From NCBI RefSeq assembly GCF_039533965.1, contig NZ_BAAAUN010000001.1, positions 2,764,950 to 2,828,949 on the forward strand: a stretch of 64,000 nucleotides of DNA. The letters run 5' to 3'. This DNA comes from Microbacterium luteolum. GTDB lineage: Bacteria > Actinomycetota > Actinomycetes > Actinomycetales > Microbacteriaceae. The notes under the pieces were generated by a model. That model made no database searches. It saw only the letters and a program-made list of their open reading frames with translations, and was not told where the DNA came from. Positions within the stretch are counted from its first letter, which is position 1. Every line of letters starts with the position of its first letter. Made by a program: the position numbers and the translations under genes. Of this stretch, positions 14,338 through 43,272 are shown one piece after another.

Positions 14338-17300
14338 TGGCTCGTCCCGTCGCATCCCGCCTCCTCGCCGTCGCAGCGGCCGGCGCCCTGCTCGCTGCGG
14401 GGTTCACCGCCGCCGGCGCACCCGCGCCCGCCGCCGCCGCGGAACCGCTGGCGTGCATCAACACCCTCTACTACGCCAACAACCAGGCCGGCACCGTGTG
14501 GCAGCTCGACCTGACCACCGGCACCGCATCGACGACCCCGACCTTCACCGTGCCCTCGACCGACGGTGCCTTCGCGAACCAGCTGGGTATCGGTGCAGGC
14601 GGCACCGCCGCGATCCTCGGGACATCGACGAGCGTCGTCGAGTACGAGCCGACGGCGAGCGCCGACGGCACCATCACCGCCTCGCCGAAGACTCCCGGTG
14701 TCGCCAACGGCACCATGGGCGCGATCAACCCCGCGAACGGGCTGTACTACTACGGCGCGTTCAATGCGACCTCGAGCGTGGACATCTACGTCTTCGATCC
14801 GGCGACGAACATCGCGCCGGCCGGACCGGTCCTGTCCGTCACGCCCGCCAACCCTCCCGGCTTCAACGGCGACCTCGCCTTCGACAAGACCGGTCGGCTG
14901 TACATCGTCGCCGGTGGCGCCTCCGAGGCGGCGCTGTATGTGGTCGATGGGACCGTGCCGACCTCGGGAACGGGCACCACCCTGCCCGCGCGCGAGCTCT
15001 CCCGGGGTGCGACCACCGTCCCGACCAACGGCATCGCGTTCGGGTCCGACGGTTTCCTCTACCTGGGCGGCAGCACCGTGCTGCAGAAGACGAACCCGAT
15101 CACGGGTGCGCCCACCGGCACCACGTTCACCCTGACGGGGGCCGCATCCTCCGACCTCGGTTCCTGCGCGAACCCCTCCTCGGCGCAGACGGTCGCGCAG
15201 TTCGACGGTCCTCGCGCGACCCCCACCGATCAGGTGCGCGTCGTGCTCGAGGGCGGTTCGTACGGTCCGGACGGCACGACACCGGACTTCCCACCGGGAT
15301 CGTCGGGTCCCGGCGGCGGAGGCGTTCCCAGCACACCGGGCCTCATCATTCCCGGCGAGACCTACACGATGCGGCAGGTGCCGGAAGGCACCACCGACCT
15401 GAACGACTACACGACCACGTGGTCGTGCACCGACGCCACCGGCGCCGTCGTCGCGAGCGGTACCGGCAACACGGCCACCTTCACAGCTCCCTCCGGCACG
15501 GACGGCGCGAACATCGTCTGCGCCTTCGTCAACGTGCTCCCGCCGCCCGTCGCCGTGCCGGATTCCGGCTCCGCTCCGTTCGGCGACCCGGTCACGCTGC
15601 CGGGCGCGAAGAACGACCAGCCGGGCACCGGCGCCATCCTGCCCGACCAGACCGTGTTCACCGACCCGGCCGCGACCGACGGCGGCAAACGACTCCAGAC
15701 CCCCGAGGGCGTCTGGACGATCGCCCCGGACGGAGGCATCACGTTCACCCCGGCCCCGGGCTTCAGCGGCGACGCCACCACCGAGTACCGCATCGTCGAC
15801 GACAACGGGCAGACCTCCACCACCACGGCGACCGCCACGGTGCGCCCCGGGCCGTCGGCAGTCGCCGACACCGCCGCGACGACGCAGGGGACGAGTGTGC
15901 AGATCCCCGTGCTCGGCAACGACGCACCCGGACAGAACGCCGACGGAACCCCGGGGACCATCCCGCCGGCATCCGTCCTCTTCGAGCCGACCGGGCAGCC
16001 GGCCGGTTCCGTCGTGAGCCCCGACGGCCGCCGCCTCGAGGTACCGGGCGAAGGCGTCTACACGATCGACCAGACGACCGGCGTCGTGACCTTCGCGCCG
16101 GATCCGACCTTCGACGGTCCGTCGACCACGCCCGTCGCGTACCGCTTCACCGACAGCCTGGGCAACCCGGCGTCGACGACCATCACGGTCACGGTCACGG
16201 CCGTGACTCCGACGGCCGTGAACGACTCGACCACCACCCCGCAGGCGACCCCGGTGACCGTCGACGTGGTCGACAACGACGTCCCCGGCCCCGGGGGTGC
16301 GATCGTGCCCACATCGACCGTCTTCACCGATCCGACCGCCACCGACGGCGGCAAGGCTCTCGTCACGCCCGAGGGCACCTGGCGCGTGACCCCGGCGGGG
16401 CAGGTCGAGTTCACGCCGGCCGCGGGCTTCTCCGGCACCGCGTCGACGCCCTACCGGGTCACCGACGAGAACGGCCAGCAGGCCACCGCCACCGTCTCGG
16501 TGACCGTGCGTCCGGGGCCGACCGCGAACCCCGACAACGCCTCGACACCGCAGAACGTCGACGTGTCGTTCCCGGTCCTCGGCAACGACGTGCCCGGCAC
16601 GGCCGCCGACGGCAGCGCCGGCACGTTCGATCCTGATTCGCTGCGCTTCAGCGTCACCCCCGGTCTGCCGGTCGGCAGTGCCGTGAGCGGCGGCGGTCGC
16701 GTGCTCACGGTTCCCGGCGAGGGCGTCTACACCTTCGACCCCGCGACCCGTGACGTCACCTTCGATCCCGAGCCGCAGTTCACCGGAACGGCGACCCCGG
16801 TCACGTACACGGTCGAGGACTCGTTCGGCAATGCCGCGTCGACGACGGTCACGGTGACCGTCGCGTCCGTCGCGCCGATCGCGACCAGCGATGTCGCCAA
16901 GACCCCCGGTGACACGCCGGTGGTCATCGACATCCTCGCGAACGACGCCCCGGGCTCCGCGTCCGTGCCGCTCGTTCCCGGCTCGGTCGTGCTCACCTCG
17001 CCCGACGCCACAGACGGGGGGAAGACCCTCGTGGTTCCCGGGGAGGGCACGTGGACCGTCCGCAGCGACGGCACGGTGCGCTTCGTTCCGCTGCCGGACT
17101 ACGCCGGGACGACCACTCCGGTCGGCTACACCGTCGCCGACACGAACGGCACCCTCGCGCCGGCGAACATCACGGTCACCGTGGGCAGCGGTGCGATCGC
17201 CGCACCGGATGCCGCGACCACGCCGCAGAACACCCCGGTCACCCTCAGCATCCTCGACAACGATCTCGCCAGCGACCTCGGCAACCCCTGCGATGCGGGC

Positions 17301-39667: not shown

Positions 39668-40192
39668 CTACCCGTTGACGAGACGCGATGCCACGCGATC
39701 CCTCTGCCGGATGGCCGCGAGGTACTCCTTCCGCGCTTCCAGGATCGCGCTGCGGTCGTACGGCGCGGGACACGGGACTTCAGAGTCATGCCGGAGTCGG
39801 CGTGAATTCCATGCTTCTGTCATCGCGGGACCTGCGGTGCTCTTGGCCATTGCGACGAGGTTGTCGTACGCCTCCGCGATGTGAGTGTTCGCCGAGATCG
39901 TCAGGAGCGCTGCGCTCAACGCGAGCCTGGACTGAATCTCGCTTATCTGCGTACTCACCGTGGCCCGAGCATCCTTTCCCTGCCGTCGGCGAACAAGGAA
40001 CGGCGCTTCCGCGTAGTCTTCCACGGCGCGCAGGGCCTCGCTGTACATGACTGCCCGCTTGTCCGCGCGAGACTGCCGTTGCTGCCACATGTAGCCGCCG
40101 ACCGCGATACCTGCGGCGAGGACCGCAGCGACGATGGTGGCACCGGCTTCGGACAACCAGAAACAGGCGCTGAAGATGTTCGCCCACTCCAT
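39668..40192 (-). CDS. One-TM protein of the CBASS operon, candidate effector
   Basis: 174 residues; its ATG overlaps the E2-like stop by one base (TGATG). One membrane helix at about 15-36 (ATIVAAVLAAGIAVGGYMW) is followed by a basic stretch and a 130-residue helical cytoplasmic domain (RAVMYSEALRAVEDYAEAPF, ISEIQSRLALSAALLTISAN). CBASS operons pair the nucleotide cyclase with an effector that kills or stalls the infected cell, often by damaging the membrane. This is the only candidate effector here. I do not recognise its domain among the usual Cap effectors, and a single helix is unusual. Confidence 0.65.
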   Translation of the reverse strand: MEWANIFSACFWLSEAGATIVAAVLAAGIAVGGYMWQQRQSRADKRAVMYSEALRAVEDYAEAPFLVRRRQGKDARATVSTQISEIQSRLALSAALLTISANTHIAEAYDNLVAMAKSTAGPAMTEAWNSRRLRHDSEVPCPAPYDRSAILEARKEYLAAIRQRDRVASRLVNG

Positions 40193-40698
40193 CAGGCAGC
40201 TTCCTCCAACCCGTGCGGTGCCTCATCGAAGGGCCAGTGGTAGTTGCTGTTCCGCCAGTAGTCCTCAGCAAAAAGGTGCCGCGCAGCGAGGTTCAGCAGT
40301 TCGTTGAGGCCCTTGTCCGGCGTCCACCTCCGCTCGACAGGGTCGTGCGGGTGGAACAGGCACAGGCTGTCATCCGGCATGCGGTGCGGCGACGCTGCCC
40401 CCAGGTCAGCGAACACCCGAGGATAGTTGGATGGCGCCAGATCGTAGGTCAAGTAGGTCGGGTAGCGATGGAACTCCACACGCACACGGACCGGCGCCGG
40501 GCGTGCTGTAACCGGGACATCCGCGACGTAGATGAGCAGGCTCGGTCGCTCTATGCGGCGAAGGCGCGAACTGTACTGCTGGCGCGCCTCCCGTTCGAGC
40601 GGGTAGAGCCATCCAGCCTCACTGCCCCACCACGGCTCAAACCGACGGACACCCAGAGGTTCGGACAGCGCCACCTGAGGCAGCCCCGGACAACTCAC
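40192..40698 (-). CDS. E2-like conjugation protein of type II-short CBASS
   Basis: 168 residues from the GTG at 40698, inside a GTGA overlap with the cyclase; the longer frame runs into the cyclase gene. The fold resembles ubiquitin-conjugating enzymes: strands YLTYDLAPSNYPRVF, a conserved HRMPDDSLCLFHP with the likely catalytic Cys113, and the family ending RWTPDKGLNELLNLAARHLF. Bacterial E2-like proteins act on the C-terminus of the CD-NTase and prime it. No E1 or deubiquitinase gene is present, which defines the short type II layout. Confidence 0.82.
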   Translation of the reverse strand: MSCPGLPQVALSEPLGVRRFEPWWGSEAGWLYPLEREARQQYSSRLRRIERPSLLIYVADVPVTARPAPVRVRVEFHRYPTYLTYDLAPSNYPRVFADLGAASPHRMPDDSLCLFHPHDPVERRWTPDKGLNELLNLAARHLFAEDYWRNSNYHWPFDEAPHGLEEAA

Positions 40699-41732
40699 CG
40701 GACACCCCACGAGCGCACGGGTGTCGCTGCCGGGGTCGGTGTGGACGTGATCAACGCCGGTGCTCCGAACGTCGAGGAGGGCTTCGCGTGGAAGCGCACC
40801 CCCTCGCGGAGCAGGTTCGCGTGCGCCGGTGCGGGCAGCATGTTCGGATCGTTGAACATGTCGGCAAGCTCCTTGCACGCCAGAACCGGGAAGCCAGCCT
40901 GGTCGAGTTCGACGGCCTTCTCGAGACGGGCCGAGGCGTCACGGAGCCGTCCCAGGACCTCGGTCCGCGTGGCTTTGAGTTTGATGGGCTTGTCGCTGAC
41001 GCCAGCAGGATCCTGCGTCTCACCCTGCTTCAACGATTCGATGGCGTAGTCGAACCAGGTGCGCATCGCGGTGATCAGCGAGCCGCTGGCGATACCGGCG
41101 CTGAGCGCGAGCGCCTTGATGTTCCAGGTGCACAGGGTGTCGCCGTTCATCCGATTCCAGTGCTTGAGGAGGCGGATCGTGCGCGCAAAGATGGCCTCGG
41201 TGCGCTTGTTTGCCTCTGCGATCATGCGAGTGTGCGCCTCGGGGTCGGAGCGATCCCAGCCGGTGAAGCGCGGGATGTAGAGCCCCTCGCCTGACGCGTT
41301 GTCGATGGCGACGATGACGTCCGCGGTGAAGTCGGGGAGACCTGGGCGAATCGGGTCCCGGAACCGGATGAGGATCGAACGCTTGCGGCCGCGGAACTCG
41401 ATGCGCAGATCTTCGTACGTGTCAGCGAGCTCGCGGCGGATTGCAGCGGCGGCGCGCTCCTGCAGCTGGGTCGGACCCTTCTTGCCGGGTCCGTACTCCC
41501 GGCGCGGGTCGGCGATGACGATGCCGAGGTCGACGTCGGTCAGCGGCGTAAGTGCATCGCCGTGCGCAACGCTACCGTTGTAGTAGACGCGAGAACCAGA
41601 GAACTCTTTGCGAAGAGCGTTGGCGATGGCGGTGCGACGCTTCCGCGCCTCCGCGAGCTCCTCCTCGGTCACCTGGATCTTGGTGCGGGCGGTGTTTACC
41701 ACCTGCTCGATGGTGGGGTACGGCTGGACCAC
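40695..41732 (-). CDS. CD-NTase (cyclic-oligonucleotide synthase) of CBASS
   Basis: 345 residues from the GTG at 41732, which has AAGGAGG six bases upstream. The nucleotidyltransferase core is clear: GS motif Gly53-Ser54 (YNGSVAHGDA), metal ligands Asp66 and Asp68 (LTPLTDVDLGIVI) and the third acidic residue Asp138 in FTADVIVAID. A helical OAS1-C-like region follows (RTIRLLKHWNRMNGD). On phage infection such enzymes make a cyclic nucleotide that triggers the effector. The C-terminus, which E2 proteins modify in related systems, is a flexible Thr/Pro/Ala tail ending SWGVR. Message leader is strongly structured. Confidence 0.85.
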   Translation of the reverse strand: MVQPYPTIEQVVNTARTKIQVTEEELAEARKRRTAIANALRKEFSGSRVYYNGSVAHGDALTPLTDVDLGIVIADPRREYGPGKKGPTQLQERAAAAIRRELADTYEDLRIEFRGRKRSILIRFRDPIRPGLPDFTADVIVAIDNASGEGLYIPRFTGWDRSDPEAHTRMIAEANKRTEAIFARTIRLLKHWNRMNGDTLCTWNIKALALSAGIASGSLITAMRTWFDYAIESLKQGETQDPAGVSDKPIKLKATRTEVLGRLRDASARLEKAVELDQAGFPVLACKELADMFNDPNMLPAPAHANLLREGVRFHAKPSSTFGAPALITSTPTPAATPVRSWGVR

Positions 41733-41754
41733 GATAGGCCTCCTTCTGTGTCGT

Positions 41755-41919
41755 TGCCCCGGAGGATCCGGGTGCACGGAAGGCAGGCTTGACCAACCCA
41801 CGGGAGTGGGCTTGATCACGCAACGAATTGCGCTTAGGGTCGAACTGTCCGACCAAAGACATCCGACCCCGACCTGCCTGAGCCCCGGCTCTGGCGAGTC
41901 GGGGTCTTCCTATTCCTTT
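41755..41919 (-). ncRNA. Structured leader RNA upstream of the CBASS cyclase
   Basis: Four consecutive stem-loops on the minus strand. H1: GACCCCGAC/GTCGGGGTC (41906-41898 with 41873-41865), with inner paired arms. H2: CGCAA-TTCG-TTGCG (41832-41819), a UUCG tetraloop. H3: a 12-pair stem with one bulged G (41818-41806 with 41801-41790), loop UCCC. H4: nine pairs with one bulged A around CCCGGA-TCC-TCCGGG (41776-41755). The AAGGAGG ribosome site follows 10 bases later. The layout suggests a regulatory leader or processed RNA; no known class recognised. Confidence 0.6.
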
Positions 41920-41931
41920 CACTTACAAGTG
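41911..41931. promoter_or_regulatory. Palindrome CACTTACAAGTG before the CBASS leader
   Basis: CACTT-AC-AAGTG at 41920-41931. Read toward the cyclase (minus strand) it is followed by GTGAAAGGAATA (41922-41911). The same arrangement, TTCACCTACAGGTGAA followed by AGAATA, occurs at 43325-43346. A shared regulator is inferred. Confidence 0.55.
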
Positions 41932-41935
41932 TACC

Positions 41936-42216
41936 CCCTACCTCCGACATCGGGAGAGGTGGGATTCCCCCAGATGGCTTACAGCGGCCCAGAAGGCAAG
42001 CGCTCGACAACTTTGATCCACCTTCTCCGGCTTCACTCGCCAGACGTTCGTAGGCGGCTTCTGAGGGGTGAATATGAAGCAGGGACACGCCCTAGGAACT
42101 ACACCGCTGTTATTCGGTGTTCATTGAATCGTCCGTCAAGTCGGTGTGAGCGCTCGGGGGTGACGCGCATCCTAGGCGTATCGCCTCCTGCAACCTGTTG
42201 TCCGGGACGGGTGAGT
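41936..42216. other. Non-coding stretch between the PIN gene and the CBASS leader
   Basis: About 280 bases with no supported gene and lower GC3-like bias than the core genome. One small hairpin, ACACCG-N8-CGGTGT (42101-42120), lies about 100 bases after the PIN stop and could end that message. Nothing else is clear. Confidence 0.35.
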
Positions 42217-42804
42217 TCAGGACCTCGCGGCGCCGAGTAGCAGCGCGTCGGCGATCCCCTGCGTGGACTCGCCCTTGAACATGCTCTGCATGTGCTTGAG
42301 AACGCACTTCGCAAACTCCGGACATCCAGCATCTTCGAGAGCGAGGTCGGGGCGCTTCGAGCCCTCGATACCGCGGAAGAGATCGAACTGTTCCAGAATG
42401 ACGTCGTCCACCGCCCTGGCCGCGTTGGCCGCAACGAGCATGAAGAACGAGTCGGCAGTGTGTACTTCATAGGCGAGATTGTCTGTGTCTACCTCGGCGT
42501 ACCGACCATCCTCAACGATCACGTAGATGGCGTTGCTCGCGAGGGCTGCGGCATGAATGCCGGAATCGCGCTCGTCAGCGCCAGGCAAGTCAGGACCGGC
42601 GGGGTAGTCCGCCACGATGTCGTCCATGCTCACCCTGAGTAGCTCCCGCAGATCCACCGCGAGTCGCTCCTCGGCAAACACGTTCTCGGACGAGAACAGC
42701 ACGAACAGCCCGCCGTTGGTGTGTGCGCGCAACAGAAACAGCCACTCGCGCAGCGTCTTGGAAAGTAAGACGTTCGCATCGACGAAGGCCACGGGGGTGC
42801 GCAC
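42217..42804 (-). CDS. PIN-domain ribonuclease-like toxin
   Basis: 195 residues from the GTG at 42804. The PIN start VAFVDANVLLSKTLREWLFL supplies Asp9-type metal ligands, and DERDSGIHAAALASNAIYVI is the central acidic/His motif common in PIN toxins that cut RNA. The C-terminal half is helical. It lies 27 bases after an HTH protein that would be its antitoxin. Located in the same island and strand as the CBASS operon, about 480 bases upstream of the cyclase. Confidence 0.75.
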   Translation of the reverse strand: MRTPVAFVDANVLLSKTLREWLFLLRAHTNGGLFVLFSSENVFAEERLAVDLRELLRVSMDDIVADYPAGPDLPGADERDSGIHAAALASNAIYVIVEDGRYAEVDTDNLAYEVHTADSFFMLVAANAARAVDDVILEQFDLFRGIEGSKRPDLALEDAGCPEFAKCVLKHMQSMFKGESTQGIADALLLGAARS

Positions 42805-42831
42805 ACGCTCAGACTACCGCGCGCTCTCTGA

Positions 42832-43272
42832 CTACACCCGGTCGTCGCCCAGCTTGATGAGAGTCTCGATTGCTTCCTGGCGAGCTTGTTCCCGATGCGC
42901 CCGAACGGCAGCCACTTCTCGTAGATGAAGCCGGTGATGAGAGCCAGCCATAACCGGCGTCAGCACCCCATCGCGGATCAACTTCATGACTGTGGGACGC
43001 GACACGCCAAGCAGCTCCGCCGCCGCGGATGTCGTCAGCAAGTCGGGCATCGTTTGGACGCTCATCGCGCCGCCGAGCGCGACCCGGTTGAGTACGTTGG
43101 AGAGCAACTCCACCACTCGGGGAGGCAGCGGTACTACGACTCCGGTTTCGGTGGTGAAAGTGAGCTGCGCGATCTTGTCGTCGCCCGCGGCCTTGACTGC
43201 TTCATTCGCAAGCGCCTGGGTCTCTTCGTCGACAAGTACCGTCCCGCGCGTGAGTAGCGTCGAGGATGCCAT
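42832..43272 (-). CDS. Excisionase-type HTH protein, likely antitoxin/regulator of the PIN gene
   Basis: 146 residues, ATG 43272 with GAAGGA upstream. Residues 80-135 contain an excisionase/MerR-like winged helix (LLTTSAAAELLGVSRPTVMK, LIRDGVLTPVMAGSHHRLHL). The N-terminal half has a PLPPRVVELLSNVLNRVA segment. Such HTH proteins precede PIN toxins in a known toxin-antitoxin arrangement, with the HTH protein as antitoxin and repressor. It could bind the palindrome at 43325-43340, 52 bases upstream. Confidence 0.75.
   Translation of the reverse strand: MASSTLLTRGTVLVDEETQALANEAVKAAGDDKIAQLTFTTETGVVVPLPPRVVELLSNVLNRVALGGAMSVQTMPDLLTTSAAAELLGVSRPTVMKLIRDGVLTPVMAGSHHRLHLREVAAVRAHREQARQEAIETLIKLGDDRV

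What the first reader, a model, noticed from the sequence alone, without database searches (positions are those of the whole stretch)
41733..41932. A four-stem structured leader RNA upstream of the CBASS cyclase
Seen: within about 165 bases, four consecutive hairpins on the transcribed strand: a 9-bp outer stem with paired inner arms, a UUCG-capped stem, a 12-pair stem with one bulged G directly adjacent to it, and a 9-pair stem with one bulged A. They are followed by a strong ribosome site. Such dense pairing is not expected for a plain leader. Inference: a regulatory or processed RNA controlling a defence enzyme; leader-controlled CBASS is, as far as I know, not a standard feature.
Basis: partly seen in the sequence, partly recalled or inferred. 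Interest (0 to 1): 0.82.

Follow-up and report, generated by a model that had tools for sequence, protein, structure and literature searches.

The report
Conserved folded RNA before a CBASS operon
Just ahead of a bacterial anti-phage (CBASS) operon, apparently behind a DNA-damage-type promoter, lies a folded RNA whose shape is kept in related bacteria while its letters change, which suggests that an RNA, not only a protein, controls this suicide-type defence.

Summary
The 200 bases upstream of the CD-NTase gene fold far better than shuffles (z -4.47). But the conserved fold is not four hairpins in a row. I read it at 10 of 14 loci (window included) that carry this cyclase: 3 trained the main model, 5 held-out ones were ranked above background by it, 2 are weaker calls. 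In those 8, 17 of 32 pairs change on both sides and stay paired. No Rfam family matches. Model searches gave one copy in this genome and, in 396 family genomes, three strong hits, all at this cyclase. A promoter element close to the published LexA-independent (PafBC) pattern lies at a fixed distance upstream in 8 of the 10; the genome encodes PafC and a PafB-like gene. Two RNA-less relatives carry CapP-type regulators instead. Best reading: a damage-inducible structured leader controlling a type II-short CBASS operon in cis. How the RNA acts is not shown; a ribosome-site switch is predicted only for the window. An RNA bound by the cyclase remains possible.

The parts
41928..41949 (-). Promoter-like element TGTCGG-N10-TACACT, close to tTGTCRgtg-8 nt-TannnT (LexA-independent, PafBC-type)
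   Evidence: Only match of TGTCRGN10TANNNT in 64 kb; 0.13 expected, 13 of 100 shuffles had one. Looser GTCRN11TANNNT at a like place in 8 of 10 RNA-bearing loci. Consensus read in a passage of PMC5656591
41865..41906 (-). P0: upstream hairpin. Short form (41904-41883) compatible with P1; long form (41906-41865) competes with P1 and P2
   Evidence: Folds; the long competing form is predicted in the window and L013
41781..41879 (-). Conserved RNA domain: P1 closing a junction with P2, P3a, P3b
   Evidence: z -5.96 alone; pair counts; R3 match of 98 bits (a training row, so matched by construction)
41872..41879 (-). P1 5' strand AGGCAGGU
   Evidence: Pairs with 41788-41781; helix 1: 96.9% of cells paired, 4 of 8 pairs with double changes
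41781..41788 (-). P1 3' strand GCCUGCCU
   Evidence: as for the 5' strand
41836..41870 (-). P2: P2a GGGG/CCCU, P2b UCGGA/UUCGA, bulged G, P2c UGUC/GACA, loop UUUGGUCG; an invariant UA ends at 41835
   Evidence: Helix 2: 7 of 13 pairs with double changes, 76.9% of cells paired; UA invariant in 10 rows; strand-swap test
41818..41833 (-). P3a: UUCG-capped stem, clear only in the window and L013
41791..41817 (-). P3b stem
   Evidence: helix 4, 80.4% of cells paired
41751..41780 (-). P4 hairpin region between P1 and the ribosome site
   Evidence: a hairpin here in the other loci is seen by eye, not tested
41739..41746 (-). Ribosome-binding site GAAGGAGG
   Evidence: sequence; predicted mean unpaired 0.12 free, 0.61 with P1 forced
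40695..41732 (-). CBASS oligonucleotide cyclase (CD-NTase), GTG start
   Evidence: PADLOC PDLC00779 E 2e-145; Pfam SMODS below its cut-off
40192..40878 (-). E2-like protein (true start uncertain)
   Evidence: PADLOC PDLC00869 E 4e-50
39668..40192 (-). Single-TM effector
   Evidence: PADLOC PDLC00666 E 9.1e-48

Best explanation
A structured 5' leader RNA of about 190 nt, transcribed from a PafBC-type (LexA-independent, ssDNA-sensing) promoter, controls in cis the expression of a type II-short CBASS operon (cyclase, E2-like protein, 1TM effector). DNA damage or phage replication activates host PafBC, which starts transcription just upstream of the P0 hairpin (inferred). The leader then folds into P0 plus a junction domain closed by P1, directly before the cyclase's ribosome site (the fold is shown by comparison, the transcript is inferred). 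Binding of something to that domain, possibly the cyclase itself as feedback or a small ligand, sets how much cyclase is made (inferred). Promoter plus RNA takes the place that CapP-type regulators take at two related loci.
For: Fold energy. Compensatory pairing in 8 sequences: 17 of 32 pairs, 0 of 500 shuffles as high, 83.8% of cells paired against 34-42% when partners are slid. Model R3, built from the window, L013 and L016, ranks all five held-out sites it could reach, L014, L015, L005, L006, L004 (22.3-17.1 bits), above the best background hit (15.7) in 16 loci. One copy in the own genome; in 396 family genomes the three strong R1 hits lie directly before this cyclase in G367, G315, G018. 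Promoter element: strict TGTCRGN10TANNNT at the expected place in 4 of 10 (L003, L013, L018, L005) and looser GTCRN11TANNNT in 8 of 10. PafC (HTH_PafC E 2.3e-31) with a WYL/WCX gene fitting PafB in the own genome. L017 has an HTH gene and a capP match (E 5.1e-11), L033 a capH match (E 2.1e-12) and a capP match (E 1.3e-29), both without the RNA. Nine ORFs upstream at the window and 7 other RNA-bearing loci gave no capH, capP or capW match and differ from locus to locus (CopC, ribonucleotide reductase, Hma-type helicase), so promoter and RNA seem to travel with the operon.
Against: No expression data: start site, transcript and response to damage are inferred. The full consensus TTGTCRGTG-N8-TANNNT matches none of the 16 upstream regions scanned, and the strict core also occurs in RNA-less L019 (-555) and L007 (-63). 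The element is not at the expected place in L004 and L016. Ribosome-site accessibility depends on P1 only in the window; in the other nine it hardly changes, so a conserved translational switch is not supported. P1 probability in the free fold is 0.01 in the window and L013 and 0.00 in L018. L018 and L020 are not found by R3 at E 5; in short stretches they get 2.2 and 5.9 bits, and for L018 the opposite strand gets 2.6. R3's held-out E-values are 0.044-0.41, and four of the five are near-copies of each other and close to training row L016.
Confidence: 0.6

Rival explanations
1. The RNA is a trans-acting partner of the cyclase: processed from, or transcribed with, the operon and bound by the CD-NTase, which it holds inactive or primes until phage RNA or another signal displaces it.
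For: The domain dominates the predicted fold in six of ten (P1 probability 0.73-0.97) and was found only beside this cyclase. A clade E CD-NTase is activated by a structured phage RNA bound on a positive surface (PMC10686824, passages read). The translational-switch reading lacks conservation.
Against: Relatives with the same kind of cyclase lack the RNA (L017, L019, L002, L033). No terminator between RNA and gene was seen by eye; the domain abuts the ribosome site.
Confidence: 0.22
2. The stems mainly protect the transcript, set its half-life or slow ribosome loading; there is no ligand and no switch.
For: GC-rich stems with no conserved effect on the ribosome site; P0 differs in sequence between lineages.
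Against: Parts of the P2 loop and the UA after P2a are invariant over ten rows while stems covary, more than stability alone asks.
Confidence: 0.13
3. The pairing is a by-product of GC-rich DNA or of DNA-level inverted repeats (operators), not an RNA function.
For: P0 of the L014 group is a near-perfect inverted repeat that could be an operator.
Against: z-scores against dinucleotide shuffles; P1 covaries across about 90 bases with other helices inside, unlike an operator.
Confidence: 0.05

Closest known systems
Type II-short CBASS (cyclase, E2-like, transmembrane effector)
   Same: Same gene content
   Different: Upstream control seems to be a structured RNA plus a PafBC-type promoter instead of an adjacent regulator gene
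CapH+CapP and CapW control of CBASS and other immune operons
   Same: Would also couple expression to DNA damage/ssDNA (passages of PMC13373217)
   Different: No CapH, CapP or CapW match in the two genes upstream here; host-encoded PafBC is the inferred regulator and an RNA domain is added
PafBC (RecA-NDp) regulon of mycobacteria
   Same: Promoter pattern close to tTGTCRgtg-8 nt-TannnT (PMC5656591, passage); PafC and a PafB-like gene present
   Different: A CBASS operon as target was not mentioned in the passages I read of PMC11804915 and PMC9122588; induction untested
cabRNA and CdnE03 (PMC10686824, passages)
   Same: Structured RNA linked to a CD-NTase
   Different: cabRNA is made by the phage and varies in sequence; this RNA is encoded at the CBASS locus and kept in structure
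Riboswitches and protein-binding mRNA leaders
   Same: Junction domain closed by a P1 stem just upstream of a ribosome site, with competing pairings in the window and L013
   Different: No ligand known, no Rfam match, no conserved effect on the ribosome site
RNA-regulated AbiF defence system (PMC12373285, title and start of abstract only)
   Same: RNA-based regulation of a defence gene
   Different: Different system; any relation of the RNAs is untested

Membership tests
Type II-short CBASS | CD-NTase gene | tested here: met
   PDLC00779 E 2e-145
Type II-short CBASS | E2-like gene without E1 | tested here: met
   PDLC00869 E 4e-50; no E1 among the five genes scanned; genes further off not scanned
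Type II-short CBASS | Cell-killing effector | tested here: met
   1TM effector model PDLC00666 E 9.1e-48; activity itself not testable
CapH/CapP-controlled CBASS | HTH repressor plus M78 peptidase next to the operon | tested here: not met
   The two genes upstream are an HTH_17 protein and a weak PIN-like protein; no capH or capP match
PafBC-type promoter | tTGTCRgtg-8 nt-TannnT | tested here: inconclusive
   aTGTCGGAG-GTAGGGGG-TACACT: upper-case core, spacing and TannnT match; first t and the t of gtg do not
PafBC-type promoter | PafBC in the same genome | tested here: met
   HTH_PafC/WYL/WCX gene and a WYL/WCX gene next to it on L058
PafBC-type promoter | Damage induction lost without pafBC | not testable with these tools
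   needs RNA measurement
Any Rfam family | Score above gathering cut-off | tested here: not met
   0 matches in the window; best sub-threshold isrB 22.9 of 35 bits
Riboswitch | Conserved folded domain in a 5' leader | tested here: met
   that it is transcribed is inferred
Riboswitch | Translational expression platform whose state follows the domain | tested here: not met
   Ribosome-site accessibility changes clearly with P1 in 1 of 10; transcriptional platforms not tested
Riboswitch | Binds a small ligand | not testable with these tools
   needs in-line probing
cabRNA | Phage-encoded RNA | tested here: not met
   Lies at the bacterial CBASS locus (window) or on a plasmid (L018); no cyclase relative in phage records

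The most novel reading that the evidence does not exclude
CBASS with a built-in RNA subunit: the operon encodes, in its own leader, a conserved folded RNA that the CD-NTase binds, keeping the cyclase silent or poised until phage RNA competes it away, with a DNA-damage promoter supplying both together.
Probability: 0.18. Interest if true: 0.92.

Novelty: new variant of a known kind. Interest (0 to 1): 0.7.

Why it matters
How abortive-infection systems are kept quiet until needed is an open question, and the answers I found in print are protein regulators beside the operon (CapW, CapH/CapP, CapK/CapS; passages of PMC13373217). A conserved RNA at the same spot, behind a promoter resembling those of the host's own LexA-independent damage response, would be a different solution, and it allows direct tests. 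It also supplies a defined candidate RNA for asking whether CD-NTases use host-encoded RNA.

Tried and rejected
Rfam at gathering and at E 5 gave nothing usable. The genome-contig scan gave one relative. Viral contigs gave no cyclase relative; eight contigs hold the 16-base P2 sequence of the L014 group, but R1 scores them at most 13.7 bits, within its background, so no phage-borne copy is claimed. phages: no cyclase. Plain MAFFT plus RNAalifold on ten sequences found no consensus pair; structure-guided alignment through R2 was needed, which leans pair counts towards the structure. R1 does not find the window's RNA. R2 puts L016 fourth, below one background hit in L017. Besides the three strong R1 hits in 396 genomes there are five weak ones (31.0 to 24.7 bits); I looked at one, G205, which lies in a reading frame I recognise as rho and is taken as chance; the other four were not examined. 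A conserved translational riboswitch was my first model and was dropped. A P2-loop/P3-loop kissing contact was considered by eye and left, since it does not fit L016 or L004. The descriptor scan, written after seeing the sequences, finds 8 of the 10 (not L004, L020), 0 of 6 RNA-less upstream regions, and 0-7 of 100 shuffles per sequence. The strand-swap test on hand-picked strands separates P1 (41/42 own, 137/252 swapped) and P2c (28/28, 50/136) well, P2a less (26/28, 103/152). The cyclase tree leaves most RNA-bearing loci unresolved; the label needs 2 changes. Paper search was uninformative: its 12 listed of 1,049 papers do not mention CBASS.

Dropped or not examined: weak cyclase loci L009-L012 were not looked at for the RNA; 8 of 11 plasmid hits (H4-H11) were not fetched; repeat fetches L001, L021, L030, L031, L032, L044-L047 of loci in hand were not counted. 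L007 and L008 were given to the model searches but are too distant (28% and 24%) to count among the 14. Upstream genes of L005 and L015 were not scanned. In one search start sites are predictions; for L004 and L016 an arbitrary start 60 bases before P1 was used.

Full report
What is there. On the minus strand three genes, a CD-NTase (40695-41732), an E2-like protein (40192-40878) and a single-TM effector (39668-40192), match PADLOC models for a type II-short CBASS (the type name is recalled). The 200 bases before the cyclase fold at -93.7 kcal/mol, z -4.47 against 200 dinucleotide shuffles. No Rfam family reaches its cut-off in the window; the best sub-threshold match in this stretch is isrB at 22.9 of 35 bits.

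Relatives. I gathered cyclase relatives by one genome-contig scan, genome searches at family, genus, order and class level and in three genera, and plasmid records; a protein search gave sequences for the alignment used. That left 14 distinct loci, the window included, with a cyclase at least 41% identical and upstream DNA: L003 (the window), L013, L004, L005, L006, L014, L015, L016, L018, L020, L017, L019, L002, L033. Reading their upstream DNA by eye I found a common pattern in ten; in L017, L019, L002 and L033 I did not.

The domain. Cut from the 5' to the 3' strand of P1, seven representatives were folded alone: z -5.96 (window), -4.22 (L020), -3.99 (L014), -3.67 (L016), -3.65 (L004), -3.13 (L013) and -1.08 (L018; that piece did not reach the P1 found later). 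The shared plan is P1; then P2, an interrupted hairpin whose base pairs a purine-rich strand with a CYYU-like strand followed by UA; then P3, preceded in the window and L013 by an extra hairpin P3a; then the 3' strand of P1. The P2 base reads GGGG/CCCU, AGAG/CUCU, GGUG/CACC, AGG/CCU and GGA/UCU in different lineages.

Covariation. A plain sequence alignment does not show it. Model R2, from the window and L013 only, placed L016 at the right spot, fourth of all hits in 16 loci with E 0.58, one background hit above it; the three-sequence alignment has 14 of 32 pairs changed on both sides. Model R3, from those three, ranked the sites of L014, L015, L005, L006 and L004 next below its training rows and above every background hit in 75,767 bases, both strands (22.3-17.1 bits against 15.7; E 0.044-0.41). 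In the resulting 8-sequence alignment 83.8% of cells are paired and 17 of 32 pairs have changes on both sides (33 cells against a shuffled mean of 9.8; 0 of 500 as high); sliding the partner by one to three columns leaves 34-42% paired. RNAalifold on that alignment predicts 25 pairs, 15 with double changes. Caveats: the alignment was fitted to the structure; four of the eight sequences are near-copies; L018 and L020 are not in it. R3 gives them 2.2 and 5.9 bits in short stretches, and for L018 the opposite strand scores 2.6. L018 is also matched by my descriptor; L020 rests on hand reading.

Specificity. R3 finds one copy in the own genome at E 5. R1 finds three strong copies in 396 family genomes, in G367, G315 and G018, directly before the cyclases; five weaker hits follow, of which only G205 was examined (inside a frame that looks like rho). 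R1 misses the window's own copy, so diverged copies elsewhere could be missed too.

Promoter. TGTCGG-N10-TACACT lies at 41949-41928; TGTCRGN10TANNNT occurs once in the window, 0.13 expected. At the ten RNA-bearing loci the strict form is at the expected place in four (L003, L013, L018, L005); the looser GTCRN11TANNNT is there in eight (also L020 and the near-identical L014, L006, L015), its GTC 59-72 bases before the word used to mark the start of the domain. L016 has TGTCGGTG-N8-TAGAAT at -372 and L004 has none. The full TTGTCRGTG-N8-TANNNT matches none of the 16 regions, and the strict core also occurs in RNA-less L019 at -555 and L007 at -63. The looser form alone is not rare (3 in the window, 3.21 expected); its fixed place is the evidence. 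The published LexA-independent damage promoter is tTGTCRgtg-8 nt-TannnT (PMC5656591, passage), later tied to PafBC (PMC8223512, passages). The own genome has a PafC (HTH_PafC E 2.3e-31) with a WYL/WCX gene fitting PafB before it, and frames I recognise by eye as TatA and TatC after it. DNA-damage control by PafBC is thus likely but untested.

Swap of regulators. In the Sinomonas plasmid L017 the place is taken by an annotated HTH gene and an M78 peptidase gene matching capP; in L033 by divergent genes matching capH (E 2.1e-12) and capP (E 1.3e-29). CapH+CapP is a known ssDNA-responsive control of immune operons (PMC13373217 passages). At the window and seven other RNA-bearing loci (L013, L020, L018, L004, L016, L014, L006) nine upstream ORFs gave no capH, capP or capW match; neighbours were CopC, ribonucleotide reductase small chain, Hma-type helicases, or nothing known. 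One upstream ORF each of L019 and L002 also gave none; what controls those is unknown. The tree does not resolve gain or loss of the RNA.

How it may act. I folded the predicted transcripts of all ten. P1 forms with probability 0.73-0.97 in six, 0.47 in L004, 0.01 in the window and L013, 0.00 in L018. In the window forcing P1 costs 3.1 kcal/mol and frees the ribosome site (mean unpaired 0.12 to 0.61); in the other nine it changes by at most 0.08. So the window's leader looks bistable, but a translational switch is not common to the family. What is common is the folded junction right before the gene. I therefore favour a cis-acting leader recognised by a partner, and give an RNA partner of the cyclase as the main rival.

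Literature. Searches for CBASS with noncoding RNA, riboswitch, structured RNA or PafBC listed 2, 12 of 13, 5 and 7 papers; from titles and abstract starts none reports RNA-leader control of CBASS or a PafBC-driven CBASS. Passages were read of PMC10686824, PMC13373217, PMC10693628, PMC6789036, PMC8223512, PMC5656591, PMC9122588 and PMC11804915, no paper in full. The library lacks most subscription papers and all bioRxiv preprints.

Noticed in passing
window 42217-43272 (-): Two genes directly upstream of the leader: a 146-aa HTH_17 (excisionase-like) protein and a 195-aa protein with a weak PIN-like match (PF13470, E 0.017, below cut-off); looks like a toxin-antitoxin pair.
   Followed up: partly
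L016, 372 bases upstream of the cyclase match: TGTCGGTG-N8-TAGAAT, a near-complete PafBC-type pattern, far upstream of the RNA domain instead of at the usual place.
   Followed up: no
G000:C1:290094-290116 and 1722774-1722796 (L053, L054): The two matches of TTGTCRG-N10-TANNNT in the own genome lie near frames that look by eye like sufB and an AAA-type ATPase; the backward control pattern has 0.
   Followed up: partly
window 41906-41781 and L013: A P0 strand copies the partner of P1/P2a, so the window and L013 have two nearly equal folds; the other eight do not show this in the predicted fold, apart from L018 where P1 is also disfavoured.
   Followed up: partly
L014, L016, L006 upstream: The gene before the RNA matches the helicase HmaA (E 6.2e-50, 1.4e-46, 8.9e-64), so these CBASS operons sit behind another defence system.
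   Followed up: partly
L020 upstream: The gene before this CBASS leader is a ribonucleotide reductase small chain (PF00268 E 6.5e-95).
   Followed up: no
window 17127-17215 (-): tRNA-Gly (gcc), the only tRNA found in the window.
   Followed up: no
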